DNA from: Periconia sp. R9002
Lineage: Eukaryota > Ascomycota > Dothideomycetes > Pleosporales > Periconiaceae
Assembly (NCBI GenBank): GCA_023627715.1
Contig: JAMAHW010000100.1
Coordinates: forward strand, 89,237-153,236
DNA length: 64,000 bases
Reading direction: 5' to 3'
Shown: in pieces, positions 1 through 26,647 of the stretch
Position numbering within the stretch: position 1 is the stretch's first letter
Layout: each line of letters opens with the position of its first letter
Notes under the pieces: model-generated
The model's database searches: none
Told to the model about the DNA's origin: nothing
The model's input: the letters and a program-made list of their open reading frames with translations, nothing else
Program-made: the position numbers and the translations under genes

Positions 1-358
1 TGACTCCTGGGTAAATGTTCGTTCGCTTGGCAATGTCGTCGACATCTCCAGGGTACCTAACTCCAGGATAGGAGTTGGTCCGTTTGGCAATCTCATCAGT
101 ATCACCTGGATATCTGACTCCAGGATAAGAGTTGGTACGTTTGGCAATGTCGTCGGCATCTCCAGGGTATTTCACTCCTGGGTAGATGTTGGTACGTTTG
201 GCGACCTCATCTGCATCCCCAGGGTATTTCACACCCGGGTAGATATTGGTAGGAGTGCGTTCTTTCAAGTCACTATGACCGCCTTCGTGAGGAAGAGGGG
301 CAGCAGTAGCCAACGCAAGCAAAGAAGCAACGAGAAGAGTGGTGCTCAACTGAACCAT
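1..358 (-). CDS. Kex2-processed repeat RiPP precursor (dikaritin type), partial
   Basis: The gene reads leftward from ATG at 358 and leaves the window at base 1, so the C-terminus is missing. Residues 1-20 form a signal peptide with a hydrophobic core and an Ala-Thr-Ala-Ala end. After a short linker come four complete 19-residue units (250-194, 193-137, 136-80, 79-23) and the start of a fifth. Each unit ends in Lys-Arg, the kexin cleavage site, and contains YPGV[KR]YPGD. The second residue of the unit is always Asn; the third alternates Ile/Ser. This architecture is that of fungal ribosomal cyclic-peptide precursors such as UstA of ustiloxin. Two UstYa-family oxidase genes start about 1 kb away on the other strand. 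Secretion, Kex2 cutting and Tyr cross-linking are inferred from family knowledge. A non-RiPP Kex2-repeat secreted protein is the alternative, less likely given its neighbours. Confidence 0.88.
   Translation of the reverse strand, partial: MVQLSTTLLVASLLALATAAPLPHEGGHSDLKERTPTNIYPGVKYPGDADEVAKRTNIYPGVKYPGDADDIAKRTNSYPGVRYPGDTDEIAKRTNSYPGVRYPGDVDDIAKRTNIYPGV
23..250 (-). repeat. Four tandem 57-nt repeats encoding the core peptides
   Basis: Four consecutive 57-nt units, in frame, encode near-identical 19-residue peptides ending in Lys-Arg; a fifth begins at 22. Differences cluster at the Ile/Ser position, at Lys/Arg between the two YPG motifs and in the acidic spacer, while both Tyr-Pro-Gly motifs are invariant. 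Confidence 0.92.
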
Positions 359-1358
359 GATGAATACTGGCAAAGATCGTTGTCTTGGAGGAGTTTGATA
401 GAATTTTAGTGTAGTTAAGAGGCATATTCACGGTCAAATGTCCTCAACTTAAACAGATTGAAAGGTCTGTCATGCCGGTATCGGGTGCTTCAGTCCATTA
501 CATGTCGAGCTACAAGGACAAAACTTCGACATCTTAGCATTGGTTTCACTAGGTCATTCTGCACTAGATTATTTTGCGTCTGTTCTAGAGCCACTATCAC
601 GAGTGCTTCTTAGCGGTGACCGCTTCCTCCTGTTTCTATCCACGATCTGCATCAACAGGCTTTGCAGGCGATCTGTTGGAGTGGAAATATACTTGCACCT
701 TCTGAATATGGTATGCGATAATCTTAGCCTACACGTATGAGCCATTCACAAGCGCAGAGAAGTCGATAACGTTTCCGAGCTGCAGCGTAAATCTACTGTA
801 GTCCAGCTTGAGTGACTTGAGTTCCACCATAAAAGAGGATGTGATTACCTCAAAGGGGAAGGTACAGAGATGCCAGGGTGAGGAACCTCAAATTTTGGTG
901 ACGTGAAGATCGCTGGCGACGATGCATGCCCCATGTAGTGTACATACGCGGTAAGCACTGTGGCCCTGCGCGCGACGCTACACAATCCTTGTTTCTAGTA
1001 CCGTAAGCATGCATATGCAGCATCGTTGAGGCGGCCCCGCCCGGAAAGTGCAATGGCTAGACTCAAGGGCCCGCTTCTGCTGAATGCTTCTGCGCCTAGC
1101 AGTGTAACATACCCCGTTGAGTAATCACTTAGGACTGGGTTTAATTGCGCTAGAGCTGAGTCCTAATCCCCACTTTGATACGGTCAGCTGCGCCCACATG
1201 CATAATTGACGCTTTCAATTTTCCGGGGAAATATGAATCACATGCAGCAATTTCAAGTAGAATAGCAGTCTTCTGCTTCATTAGTCTTCTGTTATCACTG
1301 TCTTTCATATCTTCTTTGTACTTTGTCAGATTTGCATCAAACTTCAATCTTGCCAAAG
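359..1358. promoter_or_regulatory. Divergent intergenic region of the RiPP cluster
   Basis: This 1-kb stretch separates the start codons of the precursor (minus) and the first UstYa-like gene (plus), so it must hold both promoters. Short frames across it show no recognisable protein. No specific factor site can be named from the sequence. Confidence 0.55.
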
Positions 1359-2446
1359 ATGTTGCCTCTTTTCAACACACAGTATTCATCTGTCGCGTCG
1401 GACGATGCATCGTCGTCTCGGAATTCCTGTGATGACACCAGCCCTGAGAAAGGTTTACTTACCAATGAACCTAAAATCAAAAGAATCACTAAAAGGACAA
1501 CAATACGTGGGGCAATCTTCACAATCCTCATATGTCTACTTGCTACAAGCCATTTCGCGCTATGGATCTTAGGGCGCAGAAGCATTGACGTTGATCATTT
1601 ATGTCTGCATCACACATCGACGTTTTGTAGGCTTTCCGAAAGCTTGTCAAATTTCACAGGGTTATTGACAAGACGCAGCACCCGTACTTGAAGCTATGGA
1701 ACCGAAATACAAAATGGTACAGTTCAATGGCACATTGGGTTATCCGTCTGAGTTCACCGGCGACCCAAGCCCAGAATTGGATGCTGTTTGGGATCGATGG
1801 GGCTATGGTACGTCAACCCGAGCAGTTTAAACATGGGATAAGAAAATTTTATCTGACTCGAGTGAATAGTGAAGTATGCGAGTATTCCGGAAGAGACGTT
1901 CATGAAACTTCCTGGAGCAGACCCTGATGCTGCTCGCCTGACGCCGGAATACGGAGGCGGCTATATTGGCTTCCTAGAGGTCAGCCATCACATGCATGTA
2001 AGAACTCAAGCATAACATCCCAGTAACTGTATTCTGACTGCTACCAGTGCTTGAATATGCTACGTCAGGGCATTCATCAAGACTACTACAATAATCCCGA
2101 ACACCCTGAGCGAATGGCACCTGTCTTCACAGACCGACCATATACGGTCAAAATACATCTGCGTAAGTTCGTTGACACAATTACAACCACCTAGCTAATA
2201 TTTTCTTAAGAACACTGTATTGAGATCCTACGGCAAAACATCATGTGCAACGCGGATGTAGGAGTCATTCCCCACCAATGGATTACGGCAACGCCGGATC
2301 CATATGCGAACTTCAACACTTGGCACAAATGCAGGGATTTGAGTAGCGTAGAGAAATGGATCCACGAGAATGAAATACCGGACACGCCTGATGGAAGTGA
2401 TTTGCCGATTCCGCTCAACTCAAAGATCTTTGCGCAGCCACCCTGA
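1359..2446 (+). CDS. UstYa-family (DUF3328) oxidase 1
   Basis: Five exons: 1359-1626, 1673-1807, 1870-1997, 2048-2162, 2211-2446, giving 293 residues; phases agree at every junction. An N-terminal cytosolic segment is followed by one membrane helix (about residues 52-75), then the conserved lumenal domain. Both family signatures are present: HHMHC followed by LNMLRQ, and HLQHC followed by IEILRQ, with the downstream motif CNADV. The HxxHC pairs are thought to bind metal in the UstYa/UstYb proteins, which form oxidative cross-links at aromatic side chains of the RiPP core. The gene is divergent from the repeat precursor and 446 bp ahead of a second family member in the same direction. Start ATG 1359 is the first Met of the open frame; an upstream TTG is not credible in a fungus. 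Which bond it makes cannot be read from sequence. Confidence 0.9.
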
Positions 2447-2892
2447 TCAGGTTGCGAATGAATCTCCAATGCCTAGCTCGGAAGACAGTTTTAATCCTGC
2501 GCGATGAAACAAGGGAGAAAAATGGAGATAATGCTTTTAGCAGAAATATAGGCTGATCAGCGAAATTCAAACGTCGTCATGTCTTCTTATATCAGTGAAA
2601 TTCAGATGCCGTAGTGTCTTCTTATGCTGATACCTAAATTTGAAACGTTGAGAAAGCGATATTTTATCGTGCAACCCATTTATTGTGCAAGGCACCCCAC
2701 TCGATACAGTGCTGCGTATTGGCGGTAAAGCGCGATAATACATTTTTAGCTTTCTGCAAAGTCAGCATGAACACTTGGGTGGCAGAAATGAGATATAAGA
2801 AGTGCTCGTCCAGCATTGAGGCTCCTCTCTTTTTTGCTCTGCTCAAATCTTTCGTCACCTGACCACAGTCTTGGCACTCAAGATACCTACCC
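2447..2892. other. Spacer between the two UstYa-like genes
   Basis: This 446-bp AT-rich interval carries the 3' end of the first and the promoter of the second oxidase gene. An imperfect duplication (sequences around 2575-2600 and 2598-2625 share a tcttcttat-containing phrase) is visible; no gene is seen. Confidence 0.5.
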
Positions 2893-3786
2893 ATGTCTGC
2901 AACTCAATACCACGACGTCACCTCCTCGGAGTCGATTGGCTTGTTGGACGAAGAAGTTCCAGGGGACGAGAAACCGCGACTACGAAAAAAGTCATCATGT
3001 TTCTATCTGCTCTGGCTGTTACAACTCATATTCTTCACTACTTCCCTCACCTTTTTCTTCGCTGCGCTTTCACTGTCACATTCTTCACAGAAGACCAAAG
3101 AATGTGTGGGTCTTACTTACTTTGATGAACATGTGGATAATACATGGGAAGAGCGGCGGTTTGAAGATAGCCTTGATTCGATCTATCGTGGTCCGCCGAA
3201 TCCGAGTGTTGATTTAGCGTGGCGCAGTTTGATAAACGGTATGCAGTTGAAAACGTCCAACACCGGCAGCCTAGCTAAAATCTTGAAGTAACACGGCACT
3301 CAATCACACTTGAGCAGATACGGGCCATTGGCGCACCGGAGTCATCAGTCAGGTTCCCCGAGAGAATGGGTGGAGGATATATGGCCAACACTGCCGTTTT
3401 TCACCAATTGCACTGTGTGGTAAGTTCCAAGACCGAAATTTTCTAGTTGGCCAGACTTTGACGTATATCAGAACTTGCTATGGCAATATACGTATCGGGA
3501 ATACTATGAACCACTAGAACCTATACTACAAGAGGGCGAAGAGAAAGTGCATCAGCATCTAGGTATGAAGACTCCAAAACATCTTGATAAAAATACTTAC
3601 ACGAGTCCAGATCACTGCGCAGATATAGTTAGACAAGCCCTTATGTGCCACGCTGACACCAGCACTCTGACCTATAGTTGGCCAGAACGCAAGGGTGATA
3701 CGCTGAAAGAAAACCACAGTCTCCCACGAAAGTGCCGAAGATTCGATCTCATCATGGATTGGGCCAAGGAACGTGAAGTAGTCTGA
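2893..3786 (+). CDS. UstYa-family (DUF3328) oxidase 2
   Basis: Four exons: 2893-3238, 3289-3419, 3472-3562, 3611-3786, giving 247 residues. The order matches the first oxidase: charged N-terminus, one membrane helix (about residues 34-61), then a domain with HQLHC and HLDHC, the latter followed by ADIVRQ and MCHAD. Two intron positions equal those of the first gene: a phase-1 intron seven residues after the conserved Trp, and a phase-1 intron splitting the codon before the second HC. This supports common descent by duplication, although the proteins have diverged strongly. It likely acts with oxidase 1 on the repeat precursor; two non-redundant oxidases for one core is inference. The C-terminus is shorter than in oxidase 1. 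Confidence 0.88.
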
Positions 3787-4411
3787 GAAGGTTTCGACAT
3801 TTAAAAAGACAGCAATAGTAAATTTATTGAGGATTTTACGCCTTGGAGGAGGCGCAGTCAATCATATTATGATTGTGGCTCCTGAGCCCAGTCACGCAAT
3901 CTTCCAGGTTTTTCAATTTCGAATCTGTAATCTTTCCTGGGATTTCAATGCCAGCGCATCGTACGAGCTATATTCAGACGAAGCCTTTGCTTATTTTGTC
4001 GGGGATAAAAAGACTTATGAACAATCCAAGAGGCGCGCAGTCAATATATTTTGCACAAGTGAAAGCATTTCTATTTAATGTTACGGAAACCTAAGTTGTT
4101 TGCCAAAGACAGATTCATTCCCACATTTTCAAAAGTGTAATTGAATCACATCCCCTCTGAATATCCACCGGCGATGCTTGATTCCTGATCAGTTCCTTCT
4201 TTATGAAAAGACCCGGGGCCGAGGACGAGGCATAGTGTTTCCTCCCTACCTGTGTTAATACCCAGGGTAGCAATACTCTGTGATGATCAATCCACAATAC
4301 ATAGTTGAAATCAAGGCCAGAAGTTAATGTAAAATTATAGCTGCCCTCATAAACAAACGTGCTGAAAACTTTCACTCATTGAAAAAATAGAGAGAAACTG
4401 CGACGCAGACG
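3787..4411. other. Intergenic, convergent gene ends
   Basis: The second UstYa-like gene and the bestrophin gene end facing each other across this AT-rich interval. Frames inside it give no family resemblance. It is the likely right edge of the RiPP cluster within this window. Confidence 0.5.
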
Positions 4412-6168
4412 TCAAACCTCCTCCCTCATAATTCCACCCCTCTTCGCCTTCCCAGTTTTACTACTAACTCTCAGATTTCCCCTCTCGATACTTTTTACCG
4501 CTCGTTTCCGCAGTCCCTCTCTAATGTCCTCGATGCTTCGTTCGTTCCATACGGAATAGCCTTCATTGCTCAGCGGGTGGAGGAGCTGGTTAGCAGGGTC
4601 GCAGATAAAAGTGTCGCTGGTCTTAGGCGTCGACGCAGCAATGATATTAATTTCCGCTTCGAGTTTATCACAAAAACTGTCGAGTGGGAGGTCATTGACG
4701 TCGTTGCCAAAAGGGTTCTCGAGCTCGGCGCCAATATAGGCAAAGCCTAGGATGATGTACGCTGCGACTGTCACGAGGGTTAGCAAGGTGTATTCTTTGC
4801 TGAGTTTTGGGAAGGGTGATTTACAAAGTGTGCCCGGAATCGCGATCATGCCTAGTCTGTTGTAGAGCTGAAACGGAAGGATTAAGATGTACACCCATGT
4901 AAGTTGTGAGATAGCGATGGTATATGCGAGAGGCAGGGGCGTGTTCAAAATCCTATCCGAGGTTTCTAGGATATCGTTCATGGTCGCAACGGCATTAACT
5001 ATCAATCATAGCAAGTAAGCCAGGCGGATCATCATGGTATGATGAAGGAGACGGCTCGTTATGGTACTTACAGGAGTGAGTAGCGTAAAGGTTTCCCTTA
5101 ATACCGCTGGCCGTGATGACCTCACGTAGGTATACGGCCAGGTGGTTCAATATCTCTAATGGTAGGTTGCCGAGTGGGTGTGTAGCCCGTTTAATAGTCT
5201 TTCGGGGGTTCGATATGGCAAAGGGGACACCAAGCTGCTCCCCTAGAGTCTTCCAAAAGCCCTTCTTGGAAGGCTGGTCGCGTTCTAGCTTGACCGCTGT
5301 AGCAGTTCTAGCGAAAGTGTCGAGATGAGGGATAAGTCCTTTAAGATCGGCATAGTCTGTATAGGGTTCGAAGCGGAGGCGGTGTTTGAGTGCGCGCGCG
5401 TATGCGACGATAAGATTCAAAGCAGTTCTGTCAAAACAGACATGTTAGACGCATTGGTTTACAAAAGATGCGGTTGAGTCATATGAGCGAGACGAACATC
5501 TTTCCAATCAAATCTTTTTTCTCACTTTCCTCCCTCTCTGCAACGTTGATCCAGATATGTCGCGCGAAATTATGCGATGTGTTCATTAGCAACGTCCACG
5601 CTCGCCTGCCCTCCATGTACCGCTCATACGCCGTCGTGCTGCGCACCGATAGTGACAATGCCACAATAAACCCCAGAACAGTAAGTAGTGTAGGTCTAAT
5701 AGAGACTGTCGAGGAAGACACGCACACATGCGTGAGCACCGGTCAGTGGAACTCTCGTGACAATGTCATCTTTACAGATTTCACTCACCATCTTTCACGT
5801 GTCGCATGAACATACAAACGCCCACTGTCCAGAACACCACGACAATCAAAGGAAGAATCAAGCTTGGGAGGCAGCTTCCGTGAATCCGGAGCATCATTGG
5901 CCATTTTGAGTGACGATCAAGCTCACGCGGACCGAGCTGGAGGAAGGGGTCTGTTAGCTATTATCGTGGCAACGGGAACATGTATAGCACGCACAAAGTA
6001 TTCGTCAAACTGGTGACTCTGGAAACTGCGGTGTTTTTCGTGGGAAGAAGACGGTATGAATGATTCAAAGTGACGGGGCGTGCTAGATCGCGACCCGAGT
6101 TTGTAGTCGTCTATCGAATCCCTACTTTCGTCCTTTTCCACGAACAGTGAGTGACGCACCGTGTCCAT
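4412..6168 (-). CDS. Bestrophin/UPF0187-family anion channel-like membrane protein
   Basis: Five exons on the minus strand: 6168-5995, 5936-5789, 5705-5498, 5427-5072, 4998-4412, giving 490 residues. An in-frame ATG at 6183 would add five residues. Hydrophobic helices lie in exon 2 (around the phrase LILPLIVVVFW), exon 3 and the last exon. The hallmark ENPFGNDVNDLPLD near the C-terminus, with ERYMEGRRAW in exon 3, identifies the family also known as bestrophin-like or YneE. Such proteins are membrane channels; substrate and organelle cannot be told here. The intron 3 donor is gttcgt, less typical than the others. It shows no obvious link to the RiPP genes. Confidence 0.85.
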
Positions 6169-10721: not shown

Positions 10722-13700
10722 TCAAGCCGGAGCAAGCAGCTTGCTCTTCTCTGCCAAATTCTGGGCCAATTGCGTCATGGGCACATTTTGCATAATGTCA
10801 AATACCGAGCACTCGACCGCCATCTCACGGGCAATCCAATTTCTCACCTCGACAGCCACCAGACTATCAACACCGTACGCGCTCAGGGGCCGACCCGCGT
10901 CAATGTCGGCTTCGGGCGTCATCATTAGGCTGGCAAGGCGCTGCACCATTGCTTCCGTGATGAGCTGCACAGCTTTCTCGCTAACGGTTCCGCACCGCGT
11001 TAGCTCTTCACGAAGTGAGATGGCCTGTCCAGCAATGGCCGAGGAACCGGCCCCAAGGTTTCGCAGGCCCGCAAAACGCGCATCGGCTATCCAGTACCAG
11101 GCGTCATCGTGCTCGTTAAAAGGCAGACCGCACATGACTTGAGCTGGGTGGTGCGAGGGACCTTCGATGGCGGTTGCCATGAGACCATGCAAGTCCGATG
11201 TATGCATGACCTTCAGCCCCATAGCCTTGACGTGGTCGACATACTCATCGTGCTCAGCTACAAATCCAACTGACAACAGGTAGCCAATGTCGATAGTCAG
11301 TGCCGGCAGACCTTGACTACGTCGGAATGCAGCAAATTCGTCTTGGAAGTTGTTACCACATCCATAGTTACCCTGTCCTCGGTGACCCATGACGCCGGCT
11401 AGTGAAGACAGCATGACAAAAAAGTCCATGTCGCGTGGTAGAAGTTCGTGCAGGTTCCATGTTCCATGAACTTTTGGACCGACCGTTGTACGGACATCTT
11501 CTGCCGTCATTTTATCAAAGAGACGGTCCTTAAGTACCATGGCGCCAGTTGCACATCCTTTGATAGGTGGCAAACCTCTGGCCTTGAGGTCATCGAGAAC
11601 TGTTTGTAAGTCGTCCTTGTTGCCAACATCGCAGTCATAAGCCAGTGGCGTAACGTTATATATCTTTTGCAGTTCCGAAGCAAACTCTTTGTTGCTTGCA
11701 CTGCTCGCTGCGGAGCGGGAGAGCAACACCAGATTCTTTGCGCCCTTGACTGCCAACCAGCGCGCAATTTCACGAGTGATGCCTCCCAGTCCTACGAGCA
11801 CATACGTAGCGTTGGGGTGGATATGCCCACGGGGAATTCGAGGTACAGCGCGAACAGTGTCTGCATCATCAACTCGAATAATCACTTTGCCCATGTGCTT
11901 GCCAGCCTGCATGTGACGAAAGGCCTTTTCGACTTCAGCCATGGTGAAGATTTGGAGTGGCGCAATAGGCTTGATTGCTCCTTCGTGGATCATTTTCGCT
12001 GTATCTTGCCAGAGCGCAACAGCCCGAGGCGTTGGATTGTTTTCAAAGTCAAGCAAATTGACACCGATATAGCTCTTGTTATCCAACAGAGGCTTCATAT
12101 CGAGTCCTGTGTTGGCGAACAGGTCTGCCTTTCCAATCTCCAGGAACCGACCAAACTTGGCAAGACAGTCAGTCCACGACAGACGGAGGGCTTCGCCAGC
12201 TAGCGAGTTCAGGACTACGTCCACACCCTGACCATCGGTAGCACGCAGCACACCCTTGACAAAACTGGTGTCGCGGCTGCTGAAGATGTGATCCTCGGGA
12301 ATGCCGTACTGCTCCACTAGAAGCCGTTGTTTTGCGTCTGCGCCAACTGTAGCAAAGATTTCCGCGCCCTTGGCTTGGGCAATCATAATGGCGGCTTGTC
12401 CAACACCACCAGCGGCAGCATGAATCAATATCTTCTCGCCAGCAATCAGACCGCCAGCTGTAATCAGGGCGTAGTAGGCAGTGAGAAAGATTAGGGGCAT
12501 CGAGGCGGCTTCTTCAAAGCTCATACCCGAAGGAATGGATATGGCGCCCTTGGCTGGAAAGCGAACGTAGGTGGCGAAGGTGTCGCAGGATGCAGTCATT
12601 ACTTTGTCGCCAACCTTGAAGTTTGTGACAGCAGATCCAACGCGGGTCACTATACCAGAGGCATCGACACCTAGCTTGTTCTCGGCCAGGTTTCCCAGCG
12701 CAACGAGTACATCCTTGAAGTTGAGACCGACGGCTTTGACTTCAATCTCAATCCAATCCTCGGGTAGCGGCGTGTGAGAGGTCTCATCCTCCTTCCATTG
12801 GAATGTGTCGAGCAGCCCAGGTGTCTTGATTGTCAGTTTGAGAGGACGTCCGCAGCCCTTGAACGAGACCATCTCGGGCTCACCTTTGGCCTCATACTTG
12901 CGCAATAATGCGTCGAGTTCCAGCGTTCGTTCAACACGGGGTACATAGACCTTGTCTTTACGCGCAGCGAACTCACTCTCTGTGCCATCGCCGCGGATGT
13001 GCGCTCGAGCGACTTTGAGGGTAGCCTGAGATGCCAGTTGGAAGTCAATTGTGGATGGTGATTCTAGATCGAGACAGGCGAGGCGAACACCGGCGTCTTC
13101 GTTTCGGATTGCTCTTGCGAGTCCGACCATCAAACTCTTCATGGGTTGAGGTGTGTCAAACGCACCACCGCCAGTGATCCACAACGCGCCCTCAGACGAC
13201 AGCACAACCTCGCGCAGTCTGTCCCAATCTTCATTAGTAAGATTCGCGAGGATGCCGTCTTCCCATTCAGCCAGGCAAAGGCAGTATTTGCCTTCCACAT
13301 GCGCCTTGGTAACACCACTCCATTCAGTAATACTGATCTGGTGCCCAGCGGACGTGAATGTGTTTTGAATAGCACTGGCAAGCTTGTCAGATACTTCGGT
13401 TCCAGTAGTGATGACAAGGCAGGGAGACAGATTGGGAACTTTTGTCTCGGGCTTGGTTGAGATGATCAGTGAGACCGGCTCCTTCGAAGTGTCTCTGTCA
13501 CCACGAATATCAACATCAACGCCAGAAAATCCTGCCTTGCTCAGTGCGGCATCCCACTCTTCGACATCCAAGAGCGGACCTCCTGTCCTACCATCTGCCT
13601 CACCTAGCCACCAACCGGGCAGCGGACCCATGATGAAGCCTGAGAAGATGCGCTTGATGGTGACCTCGGATAGGACAAGACGACCACCAGGCTTCAGCAG

Positions 13701-16700
13701 TGACTTGCAATGTGCCAAAGTCTCCTGAATGCTCTTTGTCGCGTGGAGTACGTTGGCACACACGATGAGATCAAAGGACTCAGGGCTGAATCCCTGCTTA
13801 GTAGGCTCGTTTTCGATATTCAGCGTGCCAAACTGCATAATGGATCTATCTTTGTTGAATCGGTCGGCTGCTTTGGCAAGAAAGCCAGGAGATATGTCCG
13901 TGAAGAAGTATTGCGCTGCCTTGGAACTGCCATCCGCGTTTCGCAGACGTTCAAGGACATGGTATGTAGTACCTCCCGTTCCAGCGCCAATCTCCAAGAT
14001 GCGCAAACCGGGACGCATGTCGGCAATCAGACCGACGTATTCGGCCACATTGGTGTTGAAGCTAGTGCCAAAGGCTCCACGGTAGAACGAATAGAGAAGA
14101 TCACCCTCAGTCATGCACTGCAAAGCCTCGACCTCGTGCGTGAAGATGCGGGAAAGGTTTTGCCCAAAGCGATCCACCATCTGCACCGTGATATCGCCAC
14201 TCTCCGACCGTACTATCCGCTTCCGGGCTTCTTGCATCTCGGTTTCAACGTCCTCGGGTAAGGGAGGAAATTGCTTTACGGTCTCGTGCATCCATTCGAC
14301 GTATGACTTCCAGAAACCATCCTGGGGTACGTGTGCCCTGCCTTGCTCGCTCTCGAACCAGACCAAGATGCGATAAATGTACACCAGTCAAACAAATTCA
14401 AGCTTGTCGAGCACCGAATCGTCGTCTTTACTCTTCAGGGTGCGCTGGTAGATGATTTCCTTGACCTGGGATGGCTCTAGCAAATCGGCATTCGTGTACC
14501 AGTTTTGCGTGAAGCATGAGGCGCGCGTTTCTAGCTGCTGGGATGCATTTTCTGTCGCACCAACGGATGCAAGTGTGACGCCCTCCATGATGACAACCGG
14601 TTCAGCCATGGCTGCATCTGACATGGTGATGTTGGACGTCCAAGTCGTGTAGCTCACCTTCTTTGCTGTGGAGCAGCCATGTAGCTCTGTGCCGGCGTTC
14701 TTTGATATATTAGCTGAGATGAAGACGCGGTCAAATGACCTAGGCACAACCGCCTCGCTGAGCACCTGTTCTTCGCCAGAGATGCTAGGGAAGACAAGGT
14801 GAAGGACCGAGTCCAATGTCGCAGGATGCACGACATGAGGGAACTCAAACTCCTTCGGCATGATGGTTTTGGTGTCGGGCACTTTTATGACGCCATAACT
14901 GCTATTCTGACCAGCGAATAGTTCCGTCATATTGCGGAAGGTAGGTCCATAGTTCATGCCAATCGTCTCGACGGTATCATACAGAAAACTTCGCGCCGGC
15001 TTTTGGCAAATCTTCCTGGCCTTGGTGATAGAAGACACATAACGCTCGTTGGCGAGAGCCACTTCATGTGCCATAGATGGAGAAAAGGACTTGAAGGTAG
15101 CAGAGACGAGACCACGAGCGTGAGCAGTCCAAGAGCTCATGTCCTCGCTCCAAGAAGAGACTGTGAACTCGTAAAGTGTACATGAGGGCGCTGCTCGGCT
15201 ACCAGTGCGGCGGTTGTGCAGCTGCGTCATGACTTCGACGCCCTTTTCTGTATCAGGTACACGAAGTGCCGTGTCAATACTGACATCGCGGAGTTCGAAA
15301 CCGTAAATTTCGTCAGCATTTGTCCCCTGCGCCAATTGATGAACTGCCTCGATTGCCATTACGAGCATGCCTGCACCCGGGTACAGAATGTCGCCCTGGA
15401 CCTTGTGCTCGCGGATCCAAGGGTTTTCGTTGCATCGCAAGAAATTCCGCCATGTGTACTCTGGAGTACCAGGAAGCCGATATCCGAGGAGGTCGGTACG
15501 GGGTGACTGACGCAGCCGGTATTGTCGGCTTAGATGCGCCTCGTCCCAGTACGACTTATGGTTCCAGCTGTATGGAGGTAAGTCGACTAGCGTTCTAGCG
15601 TCTTCAGGAGATGTATTGTTGGCTTTCTCAATATCAACTGTACATCCTTCAGCCCAAAGCTTACCCACTGCTTCTAATGTAGTAGCAGCTCCGTCGAACT
15701 TGCGGCGGAGAACGGTCGTGTATTTCAGATCCGTGATGCTGTCTTCACTGCTGAAAATGTCGAGGAGATAGCTGCGTAAGGCCGAGTGCGGGCCAACCTC
15801 AATGAAAAGGTTGGCAAAGGCTTTGCGCGGATTGCCAGAGTGCCGCAAAAGGGAGCGAGCTGCTCCGACAAAGTTGACGGGAGAGACCAGATTATCGACC
15901 CAATAGGAAGGCTTCATTTGCTCAGGAGTGATGAGCTCACCGGTTACCGAGGAAAACATGGGGATTGTTGATGTGGAACTGTGCGGAATACCCTCCAAGG
16001 CCTTCTCGTATCTTTCTCTCGCAGCCTCCATGTGGAAAGAATGATATGCAACGTCTATTGGGAGCCGGGTGCATGCTATTTGCTCATTCTTCAGCACTGT
16101 CTGCAGTGCCTCGATGGCAGTAGCATCGCCAGTGACGGTGCAAGCCTTAGTAGAGTTGTAGCATCCAATGACAGCCCTACCAGTAGCCAACGAATCAAGG
16201 TGATGTTGTATGCTGTCTACACTGGCGGAAACAGCCAACATGCCGCCATCTCTGCAAACCGTCTTGCTCACCTGTCCTCTGAGCCATGCGATCTTGATGG
16301 CAGCCTCCTGATCAATGAAGCCTGCGGTGTACGCAGCCGCGATTTCGCCACTGGAATGGCCAACGACAGCAACAGGACGGATACCAAAGTCACTCAAGAG
16401 GTCGACGAGAGCGACTTGAATGGCGGTACACGCCGGCTGGCTGTAGTCGGTTTCGCGGAGCTTAGACTCAGCTTCGGACCGATTCAATTCCTCACCCAGG
16501 TTCCATGGGCAACCGAAAGATTTTAGCAGCATCTCAGAACGTTGCATACTTTTGACGAATGCCGTGTAAACGGAAAGACCCTTGCCCATTGCATGCCATT
16601 GCGCGCCCTGGCCGGTGAAGACGAAAGCAACTCGCGGTACAGTGGAACTGGAGGAGCGAACTACGGGAGCGAGACTTGACAGCTTCTCCTGCAGGTCCGC

Positions 16701-18794
16701 AACGCTCGAGGAGACAACGTATGATTTCCATGGAAGAGTAGTCCTCTTGGAATTCAGCGTAAAAGCTAGGTCGCTGAGGTATGAGGGCCCGGTGGACGTT
16801 TTTGATGCGAGGTAGCTCCCCAGCCGCTCAGCATTGCGTTTAACTCCCTCCTGGTCATTGGAAGACAAAACAAGCAGTCTTGATGTGGCTTGGTTATCCT
16901 GCGGGATTGCGCTTGACACATCGCTTGTGGAATCACTTAGCTCATCGCTGGTAGCACTGCTCGAACTGTCAATCAGACACCGTCCTTGGATATTTTCTAG
17001 GTCTCCATTGCGCGCTATCGTGGCATGGCGTCCCTCAAGACCGTGACGGGAAAGGAAAGACGCTGCATCCTCAAGAATGACGTGTGCGTTAGCCCCACCA
17101 AACCCGAAGCTGTTGATGCTCGCACGGCGAGGTCCATTGTGAGGCCAAGATGTCAGTTTGAGGGGTATCCTGACGTTGTCTGGTAGATCAATCTCAGGGT
17201 TGAGCTTTTCGAACCTGAACGCTGTCAGTATGCATGGGTCAAAATCAATTTAGTTTGTTCCCTTACCAAAGATTCTGGGGTATCATTCCTCGCTCTACTG
17301 CTAGCGCGGCTTTAATCACACCGGCTACACCGGCCGCGCCTTCAAGATGGCCAATGTTAGTCTTCACTGATCCAACGTAAAGATCGGACTTGCGCCCCTC
17401 AACCGCCCCCACCGTCTTCAGAATTGCCCGAGCCTCCAGTGGATCACCTATGCATCTCTAGTCAGTAACATACCACTAAAATTATTCTTACCAAATCCTA
17501 GTGTCACTCACCGGCTTGCGTTCCAGTTCCATGTGCCTCGACATAGCCTGTCTCTGCGGGATCCACACCAGCCATTTGATATGCCCTTTGAATCAACTCT
17601 TGCTGCGCTTCGCTGTTGGGTAGCGAAATACCAGGAGTGTGACCATCTTCATTAGCGGCTGTGGCCAGCACAACTGCTCGAATGGTATTACCATCGCGCA
17701 ATGCTGCGTCTAGGGGCTATATGATGTCGTCAGTCAGTTCAAGGTTCAACAAGCCATATTGCTGTCTGCGAGAACGAACCTTCAAAATAGTAACCCCAAA
17801 ACCTTCTCCACGAGCAAAGCCATTTGCGCTCGCATCCCACATTTTGCTCTTGCCTTCCGGTGACAAGATTTTGGCAGCTCCCAAAAGAATAGACATATCC
17901 GGTCCAAACATGAGATTCGCTCCTCCAACCACGCTCTGTGGCCGGTTTGTTAGTAAAATGTTCTAGGACATGAGTGTTTGACATACCATCTCTGCTTCGC
18001 CTGTGCGAAGACTCTGACAGGCCAGATGGAATGCAGTCAGACTTGATGAGCATGCCGTATCTACTGTGAGGGAAGGGCCTTTGAGATTGTAGAACCATGA
18101 TAATCTGTTTGATGCCAGCGATGTTGACATGCCAGTTGCATCTTATCGTGAAAGTCAGTTCAAATGTGTTCGCATATGCCTTCTTGGCCGAGAAGCAAAA
18201 CTCGCGACTTACGGTATATCGAAGGTCCCTCATTGTCACGTGCCTGTAGGTTGGGAAAGTCTGCTGTGAAAGTTCCTATGTAGCACGAAGTCTGTGTGCC
18301 GGAAACATTTTCCAAGCTCAACCCAGCTTTTCACAAAACAAGTTAACATAGCTCAAGTTGTCTCACTGCGCACTTGGAGAACATACCATTTTCAAAGCCC
18401 TCATAAGTAGCTTCCAACAAGATACGATGCGTTGGATCCATTGCCTTGGCTTCCTTGGGTGTGACGCTAAAGAATGGAGCATCGAAAACTTTGAAATCTT
18501 GTTGCATAAAGTGTGCATGTCTATTGCAACCATCAGTCAGATATTTTATGGGCTTGAGACAGCAATGACGATGCCTTAATCTCACCTCTGCTGAATGCTG
18601 CCCAGCCGCTCCGGGTCAGGGTGGTAAAAAGCGTCGACGTTGTAACGATCTTTGGGAATCTCAGATCGTGCACTACGGCCCTCAACAAGCATACGGTAGA
18701 AGGCTTCAGGATCCTGAGCATCTCCAGGGCCCCTGAATGCAATGCCAATGATGGCAATTGGCTTGCTTGTGGGTGTTTCTGTGATGAAGGGCAT
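10722..18794 (-). CDS. Highly reducing polyketide synthase, interrupted by an in-frame TGA
   Basis: Eight exons on the minus strand: 18794-18586, 18520-18387, 18326-18213, 18141-17987, 17935-17780, 17716-17512, 17447-17267, 17214-10722 (2548 codons before the final stop). Domain order is KS (Cys183 in DTACSSS, later HGTGT), malonyl-type AT (GHSSGE, Ser672; YHSFHM), DH (His in [14 protein letters not shown], about residue 985), C-methyltransferase ([10 protein letters not shown], about 1460), ER ([10 protein letters not shown], about 2000), KR ([14 protein letters not shown], about 2210) and ACP (YGVDSL, about 2500). No thioesterase or reductase follows the ACP, so release needs a partner. The product would be a reduced, methylated chain. 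One TGA at 14390-14388 (codon 1327) interrupts the frame between DH and methyltransferase; everything after it stays open for 1221 codons. It may be a recent pseudogene, a sequence error, or rescued by readthrough or splicing. Confidence 0.88.
14388..14390 (-). other. In-frame TGA inside the PKS reading frame
   Basis: The codons around it read GTT TGA CTG GTG on the minus strand, within a helix-like segment [22 protein letters not shown] that homologous synthases keep as coding. Flanking frames are identical in phase, so no indel is needed. Confidence 0.85.
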
Positions 18795-20207: not shown

Positions 20208-21852
20208 TTAAGACTCAATGATAGGTTGATACCATCGGAAAACGTTATCGGGATCGTACTTTTGCTTGAGATTTCGTAGCTTCTCTAGCCTCCATGGTTC
20301 ATAGCCATACAGTGACTCGAGCGGATCCTCCAAAGACGATGTACTGTTTCCGTAGTTCACATATTGTTGCAGGCGGCCGTACCCAGACGTCTGTATAAAT
20401 CGTTGCTTCCAATAGTCGATATGACCCTCAAAAACTGCGCGATCTTCTATATGCTTGGGCGTGGCATTCAACATCCTGAAGCTTGCGTATGAGCATTTGT
20501 TCGTCATCAAAGTTTAACGAAGCAACTCACAAGAAATGATTCGATCCCCCACGCCAAGGAAACGCCGTTGCATCATCAGAAATTTCGCGCACACGATGGT
20601 CAGGTAGGCATTCGAACATGGCACCAAACCAACCACGATCTTCCCATTCCTCGCTCATGGCCTTGACGCTCTCGAAAAACTCACGCGTTGTTTTCAGGTC
20701 AAATTGGGCCACGCAAGCGGCGCCCATCATCTTGAAGGGGGCTTTCGCCCAGATCTCAGGCTTACAGTAGAGCTTGTTTATCTCCTTGTATGTGCAGAAA
20801 GGGAGCTCTGGCCACGGCACTGATTTTCTTCCGCTGTTGAGAACAGGATTCAGAGACTCGAAGCGCTGTACCCAAGAATCTGCGCCGGCGGCTAGGCCAG
20901 ACCAGACCAGGTTAACGAGAATGATGTGCTGAGACCTGTCAGTGATGCAGGTATGGAGAGAATCGCCATAACTCACCTTGCGACCACTGCTCTGGCGCAT
21001 CCAGAGAACAAAGATTGCCAACTCAGCAGGCATTGTCTCGTAGACACTATTCAACGTCTCAAATACTTCGTCACATTGGTCTAGAGTGTACTCCAGGTCC
21101 CAAGTATGATGAATGCCGTTGTGCGCTTGCGGGTATATTTGGAAGGTGGCTTCGAGTGCGATACCAAAGTTATGACCGGCTCCACGAATGGCCCAGAACA
21201 AGTCTGCATGTGAATTCTTTGAGGCAGTGACTACACTTCCATCAGCGAGTACGAGTTTACACGAGATCATGTTGTCATTCAGAAAGCCGTATTTTCCCTG
21301 TAGACGTCCTAGACCTGCACCAAACGATACGCCAATGACACCAGTTGTGGGACATGATCCCACATCTTTGAATATCGTCAGAGTTCATATTAACGCAAAC
21401 TTCTTTCAGAAAAACTCACTGACTTCCATGCCCAAATCATGCACAAACCGCACAAACTCATCTGTAATTGCTCCTCCCCCGGCCGTGACACGCTTTTGCT
21501 TCTCATCCCATCGCATATGGTTGAGCGGGCGCATGTTGATGCAGATTCCATTTTGGAAGCGCCTCATAGTGCTGGTGACTGCATGATGGCCGCCGCGGGG
21601 CGTGAAAGGAATTCCCTTTTCCCGGGCGTACTTGACGATTTCAACTACATCATTCTCACAGTCCGGCTCAACCACGGCGAGGTACATCGGACGCTCATAC
21701 TGAGTGAATCGCAAATTGGCGGCATCGAAATCCGTTTTGTCCTCATCATACGGAAGGTGAATTCGCGCCTTGGCCGACAGCCTTTTGAGAAGCTCCGAGC
21801 GAATTTTGTTTGCGGAGGACAAAAGCGCGTCTGCGTCATTTTGGGCACTCAT
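20208..21852 (-). CDS. Berberine-bridge-type FAD-linked oxidase
   Basis: Four exons on the minus strand: 21852-21420, 21365-20977, 20928-20531, 20475-20208, giving 495 residues. The N-terminal PCMH-type FAD domain contains PRGGHHA (His about 89/90, expected site of covalent flavin) and [16 protein letters not shown]; the C-terminal BBE signature is YVNYGN and [14 protein letters not shown]. No signal peptide is seen. The 48-nt intron 20976-20929 has a multiple-of-three length and remains open if retained; it is called an intron because of the gtgagt donor, ctgac branch-like site and tctcag acceptor. Family members oxidise alcohols, amines or ring systems in secondary metabolism. It lies between the PKS and a P450 and is therefore a likely tailoring enzyme. 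Confidence 0.88.
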
Positions 21853-24650: not shown

Positions 24651-25033
24651 CCACATAATTTTACTTGTGTTTTTGAATAATCGATGCTCGGATATGTAGG
24701 AGTCAGTGGTTGCTAGGCATTTCGATGTTGTGTAAAGTCCGCGAATTAGATCTAGCCGTGACAACAACCGTGATGATTCTGTCCCACAAATGAATTTGAT
24801 ATTGAATAGATCTACATATTAGCCGATAACAACTAGTCAGTAATGGTTATCGTACGAGGAAATCCGATTGTGGGTTCAGATAGAACAAGCATTAAGCCCC
24901 CAGCCTAGAATAGTGGACGTGGGCCAAGGGCTGTATCTTAGAATAGGCAAAGCGACTATTATTTAAACTAAAACGAGACGCTTTTGTGCGGCACAAGTAC
25001 ATCTTCAAATTCTTCAACAACACACCACCAAAC
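24651..25033. other. Spacer between two P450 genes
   Basis: A 383-bp interval holding the terminator of the first and promoter of the second P450; nothing else is seen. Confidence 0.5.
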
Positions 25034-26647
25034 ATGCAAACAAACCTATTCCTCGTAGCAACAGGTGTCCTATTCTTCGTTAAAATTACCCACACTTATA
25101 TCACCACCCCTCTTCTCCACCGTCTCAAAAGCCACAAACTCAACTGCGGTCCCGTTCCCTACGAGCCAACAAAATGGCCTCTAGGGATCGACGTAGTCCT
25201 CCGCAGTCTACAAGCCGACTGCGAACAACGCACGCCCGACTTCGTAGCCGCGCGCTTCGAAGCCATGGGTCGCTACACCTGGGGTCTATCCTTACTAGGG
25301 ACATCGAATCTGATTACTGCGGAGCCCCGTAACGTGCAGGCTCTGCTCGCGACGCAGTTTGACGATTTCGCCATGGGGACCGCGAGGAAGACGAATCTGA
25401 AGATTGTGCTTGGGCGGAGTATTTTTGCTGTGGATGGGAAGGCGTGGCATAGTGCGAGGGAGATGATGCGGCCGATTTTTAGTAGGGAGAATGTTTCGAG
25501 GCTGGAGTTGCTGGAGGTGCATTTGCAAAGTATGATGCGCGTCATAGAGGGAGCTGCTGGGGGACTTAGCACGGATAAGGAGGGACGAGCTTGGTCGGCG
25601 CCTGTGAGTTTGGCTACGTTGTTGCCGTGCTTGACGATGGATTCTGCGACGGAGTTGTTTCTAGGGCAGAGCACGCATTCTCTCGAGACACTCCTCGCTG
25701 GACAGTTGCAGAAGTCTGGGAAGGGCGAACATCACGAAGACACTTTCGAGCATGCTTTTGAGCGCATGCTCGCCATCCTGGGGAAAAGAATGCGCTTGCG
25801 AAGTCTCTACTGGCTCTACGGCAACACTGAACTCAAGAAATGCGTAAAAACGCTCCACAAGTTCGTCGACCACGCCATCGAAGCTGCAGACCGAGCACGA
25901 GATGAAGGCACACCGCAACTCCGCTACGATTTCCTCGATTCCCTCCGCACACGGTGCGCCGACCGTGCCGAGGTGCGCGAGCAAGTCCTCGGTCTGCTGG
26001 CCGCAGGTAGAGACACAACGGCATCCCTTATCGCATGGGTTTTCTACTGTCTGGTACGACATCCACGCGTCTACAACAAACTCCGACAAACCATCCTAGA
26101 CACATTCGGCCCCTACTCAACAGATCCCGCGGATACAATCACGTTCGCGAAACTCAAGGGCTGCGCGTACCTACAATACGTAATGAACGAGACACTCCGA
26201 CTCCACTCCGTCGTCCCATTCAACTCGCGCTGCGCAGTACGCGATACCACGCTCCCGACAGGCGGCGGACCCGATGGCTCGATGCCCGTGTTCGTGCCGA
26301 AGGGAATGGAGGTTAATTTCAGCACGCATGTGCTTCATCGACGGAAGGATCTTTGGGGCGAGGACGCAGATGAGTTTGTGCCGGAGCGGTGGGAGAAGAA
26401 GAGGGTTGGGATGGCTTGGCAGTATGTGCCGTTCAATGGTGGACCGAGGATTTGTATTGGACAGCAGTTTGCGCTTACGGAGGCTGGGTACGTGTTGGTG
26501 AGGATGCTGCAGAGGTATGATGGGGTTGAGGGGTTGGATGTTGATGCGGGACGCGATTGGCATAACTTTACGGTCGTGTGTAGTCCCGGGAGTCCGATGG
26601 ATAGAGAGGGTGCTGTGAGGTGTCGGGTGAGGGTTGCGGTTGAGTAG
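25034..26647 (+). CDS. Cytochrome P450, CYP52-like (fatty acid/alkane hydroxylase type)
   Basis: A single exon of 537 residues from ATG 25034; the frame extends upstream only through a GTG. An N-terminal membrane helix (about residues 4-25) leads to the catalytic domain. Motifs are the I-helix AAGRDTTAS, ExxR in ETLRLHSVVP, PERWEKKR, and heme loop FNGGPRICIGQQ. The AGRDTT helix and GGPRxCxG loop with an intronless gene are typical of CYP52/CYP539-type terminal hydroxylases of long chains. It could hydroxylate the polyketide chain or serve ordinary alkane or fatty acid metabolism; position next to the cluster favours but does not prove the former. Confidence 0.88.
   Translation: MQTNLFLVATGVLFFVKITHTYITTPLLHRLKSHKLNCGPVPYEPTKWPLGIDVVLRSLQADCEQRTPDFVAARFEAMGRYTWGLSLLGTSNLITAEPRNVQALLATQFDDFAMGTARKTNLKIVLGRSIFAVDGKAWHSAREMMRPIFSRENVSRLELLEVHLQSMMRVIEGAAGGLSTDKEGRAWSAPVSLATLLPCLTMDSATELFLGQSTHSLETLLAGQLQKSGKGEHHEDTFEHAFERMLAILGKRMRLRSLYWLYGNTELKKCVKTLHKFVDHAIEAADRARDEGTPQLRYDFLDSLRTRCADRAEVREQVLGLLAAGRDTTASLIAWVFYCLVRHPRVYNKLRQTILDTFGPYSTDPADTITFAKLKGCAYLQYVMNETLRLHSVVPFNSRCAVRDTTLPTGGGPDGSMPVFVPKGMEVNFSTHVLHRRKDLWGEDADEFVPERWEKKRVGMAWQYVPFNGGPRICIGQQFALTEAGYVLVRMLQRYDGVEGLDVDAGRDWHNFTVVCSPGSPMDREGAVRCRVRVAVE

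What the first reader, a model, noticed from the sequence alone, without database searches (positions are those of the whole stretch)
1..3786. Probable undescribed dikaritin-type RiPP cluster with a double YPG core
A secreted precursor with Lys-Arg-bounded 19-residue repeats faces two UstYa-family oxidase genes carrying both HxxHC motifs. Precursor plus UstY proteins is the minimal signature of ustiloxin/phomopsin/asperipin pathways. The core YPGV[KR]YPGD does not match any dikaritin core I can recall. Standard genome annotation tends to miss this precursor because it has no conserved domain.
Basis: partly seen in the sequence, partly recalled or inferred. Interest (0 to 1): 0.92.

Follow-up and report, generated by a model that had tools for sequence, protein, structure and literature searches.

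The report
Fungal ribosomal peptide cluster, YPGV core
A mould related to Periconia carries a compact gene cluster that appears to make small oxidised peptides from a nine-fold repeated precursor with copper-type oxidases; it is a new-looking member of a known kind of fungal peptide pathway, with its product still unseen.

Summary
The window's left edge cuts a complete 202-aa secreted precursor (contig 88986-89594, minus strand): signal-peptide-like start plus nine units TN[IS]YPGV[KR]YPGD-xD..., joined by eight KR sites. It faces two intact UstYa (PF11807) genes with paired HxxHC motifs. Leftwards the cluster continues: a third UstYa gene, three divergent HxxHC proteins, an MFS transporter. 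No tyrosinase or S41 peptidase match lies on this contig.

Precursor relatives exist in Periconia macrospinosa, Aspergillus alliaceus and, tentatively, Penicillium hordei. In the first two the UstYa-A ortholog has the next locus tag. Across genera the conserved part is TNIYP[GC][VI]; the second YPG is seen only in Periconia and the window, though strongly conserved within this array. So the "double YPG core" is a lineage feature.

Best explanation: Kex2 releases the units and binuclear-copper UstYa oxidases modify them in the secretory lumen, most plausibly Tyr4-O to Cbeta of Val7; the ring is inference. Verdict: real, a new member of the UstYa-type Kex2-repeat RiPPs (dikaritins in the broad sense), not ustiloxin/phomopsin type.

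Side finding: two genes elsewhere in this genome fuse such repeats to an HxxHC domain in one polypeptide.

The parts
1..358 (-). 5' part of the Kex2-repeat precursor gene (signal-peptide-like start and first units TN[IS]YPGV[KR]YPGD...KR); the gene continues beyond the window to contig C100:88986 (nine units, 202 aa in all)
   Evidence: Contig coordinate = window coordinate + 89236.
1359..2446 (+). gene A, UstYa-family oxidase, exons 1359-1626, 1673-1807, 1870-1997, 2048-2162, 2211-2446; motifs HHMHC and HLQHC
   Evidence: model; PF11807, E 5.3e-51; orthologs; motifs. The first intron (GTAGGC..AAG) is the least certain boundary; no transcripts were available.
2893..3786 (+). gene B, UstYa-family oxidase, exons 2893-3238, 3289-3419, 3472-3562, 3611-3786; motifs HQLHC and HLDHC
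   Evidence: model; PF11807, E 8.4e-49; motifs. The third intron keeps the frame either way; it is chosen because it completes HLDHC.
359..1358 (.). 1.0-kb divergent intergenic region between the precursor start and gene A
   Evidence: read directly; no gene was assigned in it. Promoter function is inferred from position only.

Best explanation
A UstYa-type (DUF3328) RiPP biosynthetic cluster. SHOWN by sequence: a multicore precursor of nine units joined by KR; two intact UstYa genes beside it in the window and a third to its left; three further divergent proteins with the same HxxHC-x(n)-HxxHC signature and an MFS transporter just beyond; conservation of the precursor/UstYa-A pair in two other species. 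INFERRED from characterised relatives: the precursor enters the secretory pathway, Kex2 cuts after KR and a Kex1-type carboxypeptidase trims KR, giving 17-mers TN[IS]YPGV[KR]YPGDxDxxx (14 residues for the last unit; the first unit would need another cut before it). UstYa proteins, anchored by one N-terminal helix with the catalytic part in the lumen, use a binuclear copper site (the two HxxHC motifs) and O2 to attack C-H bonds. MY SPECIFIC PROPOSAL: Tyr4-Pro5-Gly6-Val7 forms a turn and gene A makes an ether from the Tyr4 phenol O to Cbeta of residue 7 (Val, or Ile in P. hordei, hence beta-branched); the acidic tail serves as recognition follower; in Periconia the second Tyr9-Pro-Gly-Asp is a second modification site for one of the extra oxidases; the transporter exports the product. 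Two product series (I/K and S/R) are encoded.
For: Precursor anatomy and purifying selection on the units. PF11807 matches for A, B, C. Three HxxHC proteins: D (contig 86131-86808 -) and E (ORF 84997-85923 +) between precursor and transporter, F (ORF 81839-82450 +) just beyond the transporter; MFS transporter at 82830-84254 - (MFS_1 6.6e-13). Consecutive locus tags and equal contig lengths for precursor and UstYa-A ortholog: Periconia macrospinosa DM02DRAFT_625319/625320 (both 279770 bp) and Aspergillus alliaceus ETB97_011436/011437 (both 310319 bp). UstYa chemistry: CctR is a lumenal, membrane-anchored binuclear copper enzyme whose HxxHC residues are essential (PMC12435403, parts 1 and 2 of 3 read); DUF3328 proteins install ethers, hydroxyls, chlorines and dehydro-residues (passages of PMC10880069, and PMC12048977). 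In the AlphaFold2 model of a 66%-identical relative (P0005) the motifs, at residues 178-182 and 218-222, fall in two long helices, 175-190 and 212-233, after a long N-terminal helix 44-75.
Against: No product, transcript or enzyme activity was seen. Which residues are joined is not shown: Ile3 is Ser in 4 of 9 units, and UstYa proteins can hydroxylate or desaturate instead of cyclising. The short last segment of the P. hordei protein, TIYSCA, has Ala at Tyr+3, against a beta-branched residue there, though it may be a truncated gene model. No tyrosinase and no S41 peptidase match on the contig. Whether C, D, E, F and the transporter accompany the precursor in other species was not tested. D, E, F do not pass the PF11807 cut-off; their kinship to UstYa rests on the motif pair and a weak profile match (three-sequence profile: probability 1.5%, E 0.035; five sequences, global mode: 72.7%, E 4e-6 for the single comparison). 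The P. hordei relative is weak (E 4.4e-3, 62 aa). The AlphaFold2 model has mean pLDDT 72.4 and pTM 0.58 and no PDB match.
Confidence: 0.8

Rival explanations
1. The oxidases act on the same peptides, but by hydroxylation or dehydrogenation rather than by closing a ring; the product is a linear oxidised peptide.
For: DUF3328 members are known to hydroxylate (CctR) and to install dehydro-Ile, dehydro-Asp and dehydro-Pro in phomopsins (passage). Ile, Asp and Pro are all in the unit.
Against: Tyr4 is present in every TN unit seen: 9 of 9 here, 4 of 4 in P. macrospinosa, 3 of 3 in A. alliaceus, 1 of 1 in P. hordei, as expected for a phenol cross-link donor; V or I at +3 in the same units fits an acceptor. 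Neither is proof.
Confidence: 0.25
2. The precursor gives unmodified signalling or pheromone-like peptides; the UstYa genes beside it serve something else.
For: Most Kex2-repeat proteins are not near DUF3328 genes (6120 of 7878 in PMC7329392, passages), and some are pheromones.
Against: Three UstYa genes flank this precursor and the precursor/UstYa-A pair is kept in Periconia macrospinosa and Aspergillus alliaceus. The same paper finds Tyr-containing repeats more often among DUF3328-linked precursors (65.6% against 38.2%).
Confidence: 0.07
3. The UstYa genes belong to the polyketide cluster further right in the window and not to the precursor.
For: A highly reducing PKS (10725-17249), an FAD-binding oxidase (20530-21384) and a P450 gene (24947-26644) lie 7-23 kb away, and DUF3328 proteins also occur in non-RiPP clusters (passage).
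Against: A bestrophin and a kinase-like gene lie between; in two other species the precursor has the locus tag next to the UstYa-A ortholog.
Confidence: 0.04
4. The cluster is decaying and makes nothing.
For: None seen; gene models were made by hand without transcripts, and the start of F is not settled.
Against: Open frames, the motif pair in A, B, C, D, E and F, and strong purifying selection among the units.
Confidence: 0.02

Closest known systems
Ustiloxin / phomopsin clusters (dikaritins in the strict sense)
   Same: secreted multicore Kex2-repeat precursor, several UstYa (DUF3328) proteins, Tyr in the core
   Different: ustiloxin-type repeats carry YXIX (passages of PMC7329392); here YPGV. 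No tyrosinase and no S41 peptidase match on the contig.
Asperipin-2a cluster
   Same: repeat precursor plus UstYa; more than one Tyr per unit (here in Periconia)
   Different: one DUF3328 gene according to PMC7329392 (passage), here three plus three divergent ones. The asperipin core FYYTGY and the lack of a tyrosinase there are recalled, not from a call.
Epichloecyclins (GigA)
   Same: imperfect core variants in one precursor, Tyr internal to the unit
   Different: cross-link there is Ile (N-terminal) to Tyr (passage of PMC9233826); here the residue before Tyr is Ser in 4 of 9 units.
CctR / cyclochlorotine DUF3328 enzymes
   Same: family PF11807, HxxHC-x(n)-HxxHC, one N-terminal helix; binuclear copper by inference

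Membership tests
UstYa-type Kex2-repeat RiPP (dikaritin, broad definition with DUF3328 as class-defining enzyme, as cited in PMC12048977) | DUF3328 (PF11807) protein with two HxxHC motifs beside a precursor | tested here: met
   genes A, B, C over the Pfam cut-off (C on one ORF piece); motif pairs present
UstYa-type Kex2-repeat RiPP (dikaritin, broad definition with DUF3328 as class-defining enzyme, as cited in PMC12048977) | secreted precursor with repeated cores between Kex2 sites | tested here: met
   202 aa, nine units, eight KR sites; signal peptide judged by eye; no KR before the first unit
UstYa-type Kex2-repeat RiPP (dikaritin, broad definition with DUF3328 as class-defining enzyme, as cited in PMC12048977) | cross-linked peptide product | not testable with these tools
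   no metabolite data
Dikaritin in the strict five-gene sense (Ding et al., as cited in PMC12048977) | tyrosinase in the cluster | tested here: not met
   0 of 32 PF00264 matches in the genome lie on contig C100 (exon-wise search, best candidates only)
Dikaritin in the strict five-gene sense (Ding et al., as cited in PMC12048977) | methyltransferase in the cluster | tested here: inconclusive
   none among the selected ORFs scanned around the precursor; the only methyltransferase seen is a domain of the PKS at 10725-14387; no genome-wide methyltransferase search was made
Dikaritin in the strict five-gene sense (Ding et al., as cited in PMC12048977) | transporter or peptidase | tested here: met
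   MFS transporter at contig 82830-84254; no S41 peptidase on C100, 0 of 4 matches
Ustiloxin/phomopsin type (G-10 of PMC7329392) | core tetrapeptide YXIX | tested here: not met
   YPGV and YPGD in 9 of 9 units
PF11807 family, for genes D, E, F | profile score over the Pfam cut-off | tested here: not met
   D 12.5, E 13.5 bits against 25, F no match; motif pair present in 3 of 3, and in 0 of 200000 shuffles of D
Alpha-pheromone precursors | Pfam mating-factor or pheromone match | tested here: not met
   no such match for the precursor at E up to 1; the five weak matches listed are below their cut-offs

The most novel reading that the evidence does not exclude
The TNxYP[GC][VI] peptides are a distinct RiPP family made by two kinds of copper oxidase: classical UstYa proteins plus a separate HxxHC family below the Pfam cut-off (D, E, F) that in this genome lies within 7 kb of a Kex2-repeat gene at all three loci where one query found it (5 of 5 genes). 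Together with two other genes in which repeats and an HxxHC domain are one polypeptide, this would mean that fungi have split and fused HxxHC-oxidase RiPP systems, the fungal counterpart of split and fused BURP cyclases in plants.
Probability: 0.35. Interest if true: 0.8.

Novelty: new member of a known kind. Interest (0 to 1): 0.5.

Why it matters
A DUF3328 enzyme was shown in 2025 to be a binuclear copper enzyme, and few ribosomal substrates of the family are known to me. This locus supplies a short, well-bounded substrate series (two natural core variants in one precursor, and Aspergillus and Penicillium versions with other tails) next to an oxidase whose ortholog travels with it, so the site and kind of modification can be tested with synthetic peptides. 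It also points to a divergent HxxHC family and to precursor-oxidase fusions that Pfam does not recognise. As one more of many DUF3328-linked repeat precursors (1758 were counted in PMC7329392) it is in itself only moderately surprising.

Tried and rejected
Rejected: 'double YPG' as the family core (relatives lack the second Tyr); link to the PKS cluster (see rivals); the idea that the contig ends at the window (one search showed 89 kb more to the left, of which I read the nearest 30 kb; the rest was seen only by genome-wide searches). Led nowhere: no PDB relative by sequence or fold (no match under E 0.001); core strings in the literature (0 papers); names of four species with UstYa or RiPP (nothing to the point in the 20 listed of 34); Pfam on the fusion ORF (nothing above cut-off). 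My first splice attempts for gene A failed through off-by-one exon ends and a wrong required peptide, corrected; one search read the wrong strand. My repeat scanner missed the C11 fusion, which the motif scan found, so its yield is a lower bound; in the window it also flagged a low-complexity ORF that I did not count. In the tree gene B sits on a very long branch and its place means nothing. The single-sequence precursor search could not see relatives shorter than 0.55 of 202 aa, such as the 107-aa P. macrospinosa one that one search found; longer ones may be missed too.
Full report
WHAT IS THERE. The window is contig C100:89237-153236 of a 42.9-Mb genome in 267 contigs. It begins MVQLSTTLLVASLLALATAAPLPHEGGHSDLKERTP and continues with nine units TN[IS]YPGV[KR]YPGD-xD-xxx-KR, the last ending ...TD-stop; there are eight KR sites and none before the first unit. 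Five units are TNIYPGVK and four TNSYPGVR; positions 3 and 8 are fully linked, so two core variants are encoded. The search found this precursor only at this place in the genome (three overlapping matches at one locus).

SELECTION. Among the nine units, 10 of the 12 core positions never change in protein although each of them varies in codon (Sd 196 of 264 synonymous sites, Nd 0 of 816 nonsynonymous, summed over the 36 pairs; pairs are not independent). For the second YPGD alone it is 75 of 96 against 0 of 336. The spacer has pN/pS 0.30. The whole core, second YPG included, is thus held constant in this array.

THE ENZYMES. Gene A (window 1359-2446) and gene B (2893-3786) run away from the precursor on the plus strand. 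Spliced, they are 293 and 247 aa, match PF11807 at 5.3e-51 and 8.4e-49 and carry HHMHC/HLQHC and HQLHC/HLDHC. Left of the precursor lies a third UstYa gene, C (contig 87544-88396, 251 aa in the model I prefer of five that fit; C-terminal ORF piece PF11807 5e-20; HQLHC/HTLHC). Further left are D (86131-86808, minus), E (ORF 84997-85923, plus) and F (ORF 81839-82450, plus, start not settled), short proteins with one N-terminal hydrophobic stretch (by eye), a cysteine-containing middle (CxCG...CKYD...WLPxxCRDDEL in D and F) and an HxxHC pair. They miss the PF11807 cut-off (12.5, 13.5 bits, none). Profile comparison to UstYa was weak with three sequences (probability 1.5%, E 0.035) and better with five sequences aligned in global mode (72.7%, E 4e-6). 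The motif pair arose in 0 of 200000 shuffles of D. An MFS transporter lies at 82830-84254 (MFS_1 6.6e-13). Beyond it are a GNAT acetyltransferase (79614-80702) and a GMC oxidoreductase (about 76300-78765) whose membership is open, then genes of other kinds (phosphorylase, IBR, Ras, WW). To the right follow a bestrophin (pieces within 4415-5742) and a kinase-like gene. None of the 32 tyrosinase matches and none of the 4 S41 peptidase matches in the genome are on C100. Pfam was run on selected ORFs, not on every ORF of the region.

CHANCE. 64 exon matches to PF11807 merge into 43 gene loci, 0.010 per 10 kb. Three within 5 kb of one repeat precursor are far above that density, but of the 9 pairs of UstYa loci closer than 10 kb only 2 are here and 7 lie elsewhere, so these genes cluster anyway.

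RELATIVES. Searching 5.8 billion proteins gave one precursor relative for the single sequence (7991 candidates scored) and three for the two-sequence profile, of which two are new (7987 candidates scored). They are: Periconia macrospinosa DM02DRAFT_625319 (four units, near identical), Aspergillus alliaceus ETB97_011436 (E 1.2e-16; three TNIYPGVGLAG[DE] units), and Penicillium hordei N7537_007020 (E 4.4e-3, 62 aa; TNIYPCIKLEGEEGENLEKR then TIYSCA), the last tentative. UstYa A has 30 relatives at E 1e-10 among 1455 candidates: DM02DRAFT_625320 (95% identical over 67% of the query) and ETB97_011437 (60% over all of it) carry the tags next to those precursors, on contigs of the same length. So 2 of 3 relatives have the pair; for P. 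hordei I could not look. The tree puts window A with Periconia and Kalmusia (99/96), then a metagenome row, then an Aspergillus/Penicillium group (99/97 for the seven). The host is therefore probably a Periconia or close to it; no name was given to me.

WHAT IS CONSERVED. Between the genera the shared part is the leader end and TNIYP[GC][VI]; then xxxG[DE] and an acidic tail. The second Tyr is in the window's species and P. macrospinosa only.

MECHANISM. UstYa-type proteins are known oxidases. CctR has been shown to be a membrane-anchored dimer with two Cu per monomer, assigned to the HxxHC pair, needing O2 and electrons; its authors place the catalytic part in the organelle lumen (PMC12435403, parts 1 and 2 of 3 read). 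Phomopsin PhomYc-e were linked by gene inactivation to dehydro-residues (passage of PMC10880069). A JACS 2025 paper on a copper-dependent DUF3328 macrocyclase in fungal RiPPs was seen only as a reference; it is not held. In an AlphaFold2 model of a 66%-identical relative of A the two motifs (178-182, 218-222) fall in two long helices after a long N-terminal helix (mean pLDDT 72.4), compatible with the CctR description. From this I infer Kex2 release, trimming, oxidation and export. The ring Tyr4-O to Cbeta of Val/Ile7 is my proposal: Tyr4 is in every TN unit seen (9, 4, 3 and 1 in the four species), residue 7 is V or I in the same units, Pro-Gly between them favours a turn, while residue 3 is Ser in 4 of 9 units. 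Against it: the terminal TIYSCA of P. hordei has Ala at Tyr+3. I give that ring about 0.35; the RiPP assignment itself about 0.9; the composite statement 0.8.

MEMBERSHIP. Under the broad definition (DUF3328 as class enzyme, as cited in PMC12048977, passages) it is a dikaritin. Under the older five-gene definition it is not, since tyrosinase was sought and not found on the contig. It is not of the ustiloxin/phomopsin type (YXIX; passages of PMC7329392).

NOVELTY. Searches for IYPGV, YPGVKYPG, YPGVRYPG and YPGDADE in the full text of the held library returned 0 papers; on the wider topic showed no description in the listings or passages I saw (PMC6339444: passages). Supplementary files could not be read. 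PMC7329392 refers to supplementary tables of its 7878 precursors, and Periconia is among the genera it mined (named under type G-8, a di-histidine type), so this peptide may already be listed there as an unnamed type. Hence 'new member of a known kind'.

BEYOND THE FINDING. D-type proteins number five in the genome at E 0.001 with one query (a lower bound): three here, one at C136 and one at C47. Fetching those two places showed a Kex2-repeat gene 2.4 and 1.2 kb away, so 5 of 5 genes at 3 of 3 loci lie within 7 kb of such a gene; the control is thin (no convincing other repeat gene in the remaining window and the 30 kb to its left). At C136 the repeat gene is itself striking: one open frame of 331 aa holds five DAPWYRDSAAS units (four ended by KR) and then a domain with HQYHC and HVIHC. 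A second such gene lies at C11:439811-441063, eight xWYxDS units over two ORFs joined by what looks like one intron, then HQTHC and HAIHC. Both have a signal-peptide-like stretch upstream (by eye). The C-terminal domains are 58% identical over 175 aa. Pfam gives no match above cut-off for the C136 ORF (the C11 ORF was not scanned); profile comparison to UstYa is weak (15%, E 0.0018). Plants have fused and split BURP cyclases (passages of PMC12186524); these genes look like a fungal counterpart, untested.

Noticed in passing
L037:2450-3442 minus (C136:17949-18941) and L038:6612-7864 plus (C11:439811-441063): Two genes in which Kex2-type repeats (five DAPWYRDSAAS units; eight xWYxDS units) and a C-terminal domain with two HxxHC motifs appear to be one polypeptide; the domains are 58% identical over 175 aa. 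Possible self-modifying precursor-oxidase fusions.
   Followed up: partly
L050:2702-3175 minus and 4384-5247 plus (C47): Kex2-repeat gene with five QHM[VI]DPP units beside a D-type HxxHC gene; none of the 64 PF11807 matches lies near it. A transferase-family and a fungal transcription factor ORF flank it.
   Followed up: partly
L037:5847-6809 plus (C136:21346-22308): Another D-type HxxHC protein, beside a PF11807 gene, the fusion gene and a sulfotransferase-like ORF.
   Followed up: partly
L007 and L021 (C60, repeat ORF at about 46.0-46.4 kb): Kex2-repeat ORF with AxWYDITYID units between two UstYa genes.
   Followed up: no
L036 start (C75, about 42.3 kb): Partial Kex2-repeat ORF with VAYPESY units near two UstYa genes.
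   Followed up: no
L044:6881-7840 plus (C65): Long array of KGRKNNRR / EARDPHH units near a UstYa gene.
   Followed up: no
L042 (C64:200325-202541): Two UstYa loci with a tyrosinase match 479 bases further on, an ustiloxin-like combination; my scanner saw no repeat precursor in the 10 kb fetched.
   Followed up: no
window 10725-17249 minus, 20530-21384 minus, 24947-26644 plus: Highly reducing PKS (acyltransferase, dehydratase, methyltransferase, enoyl-reductase-like, KR and ACP domains), an FAD-binding oxidase piece and a cytochrome P450: a separate polyketide cluster.
   Followed up: partly
window 28767-30413 minus: Open frame of 549 aa with long runs of PPSSNN/PPSNNPP, low complexity.
   Followed up: no
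window 2556-2625: Two-copy 35-base tandem repeat between genes A and B (82% matches).
   Followed up: no
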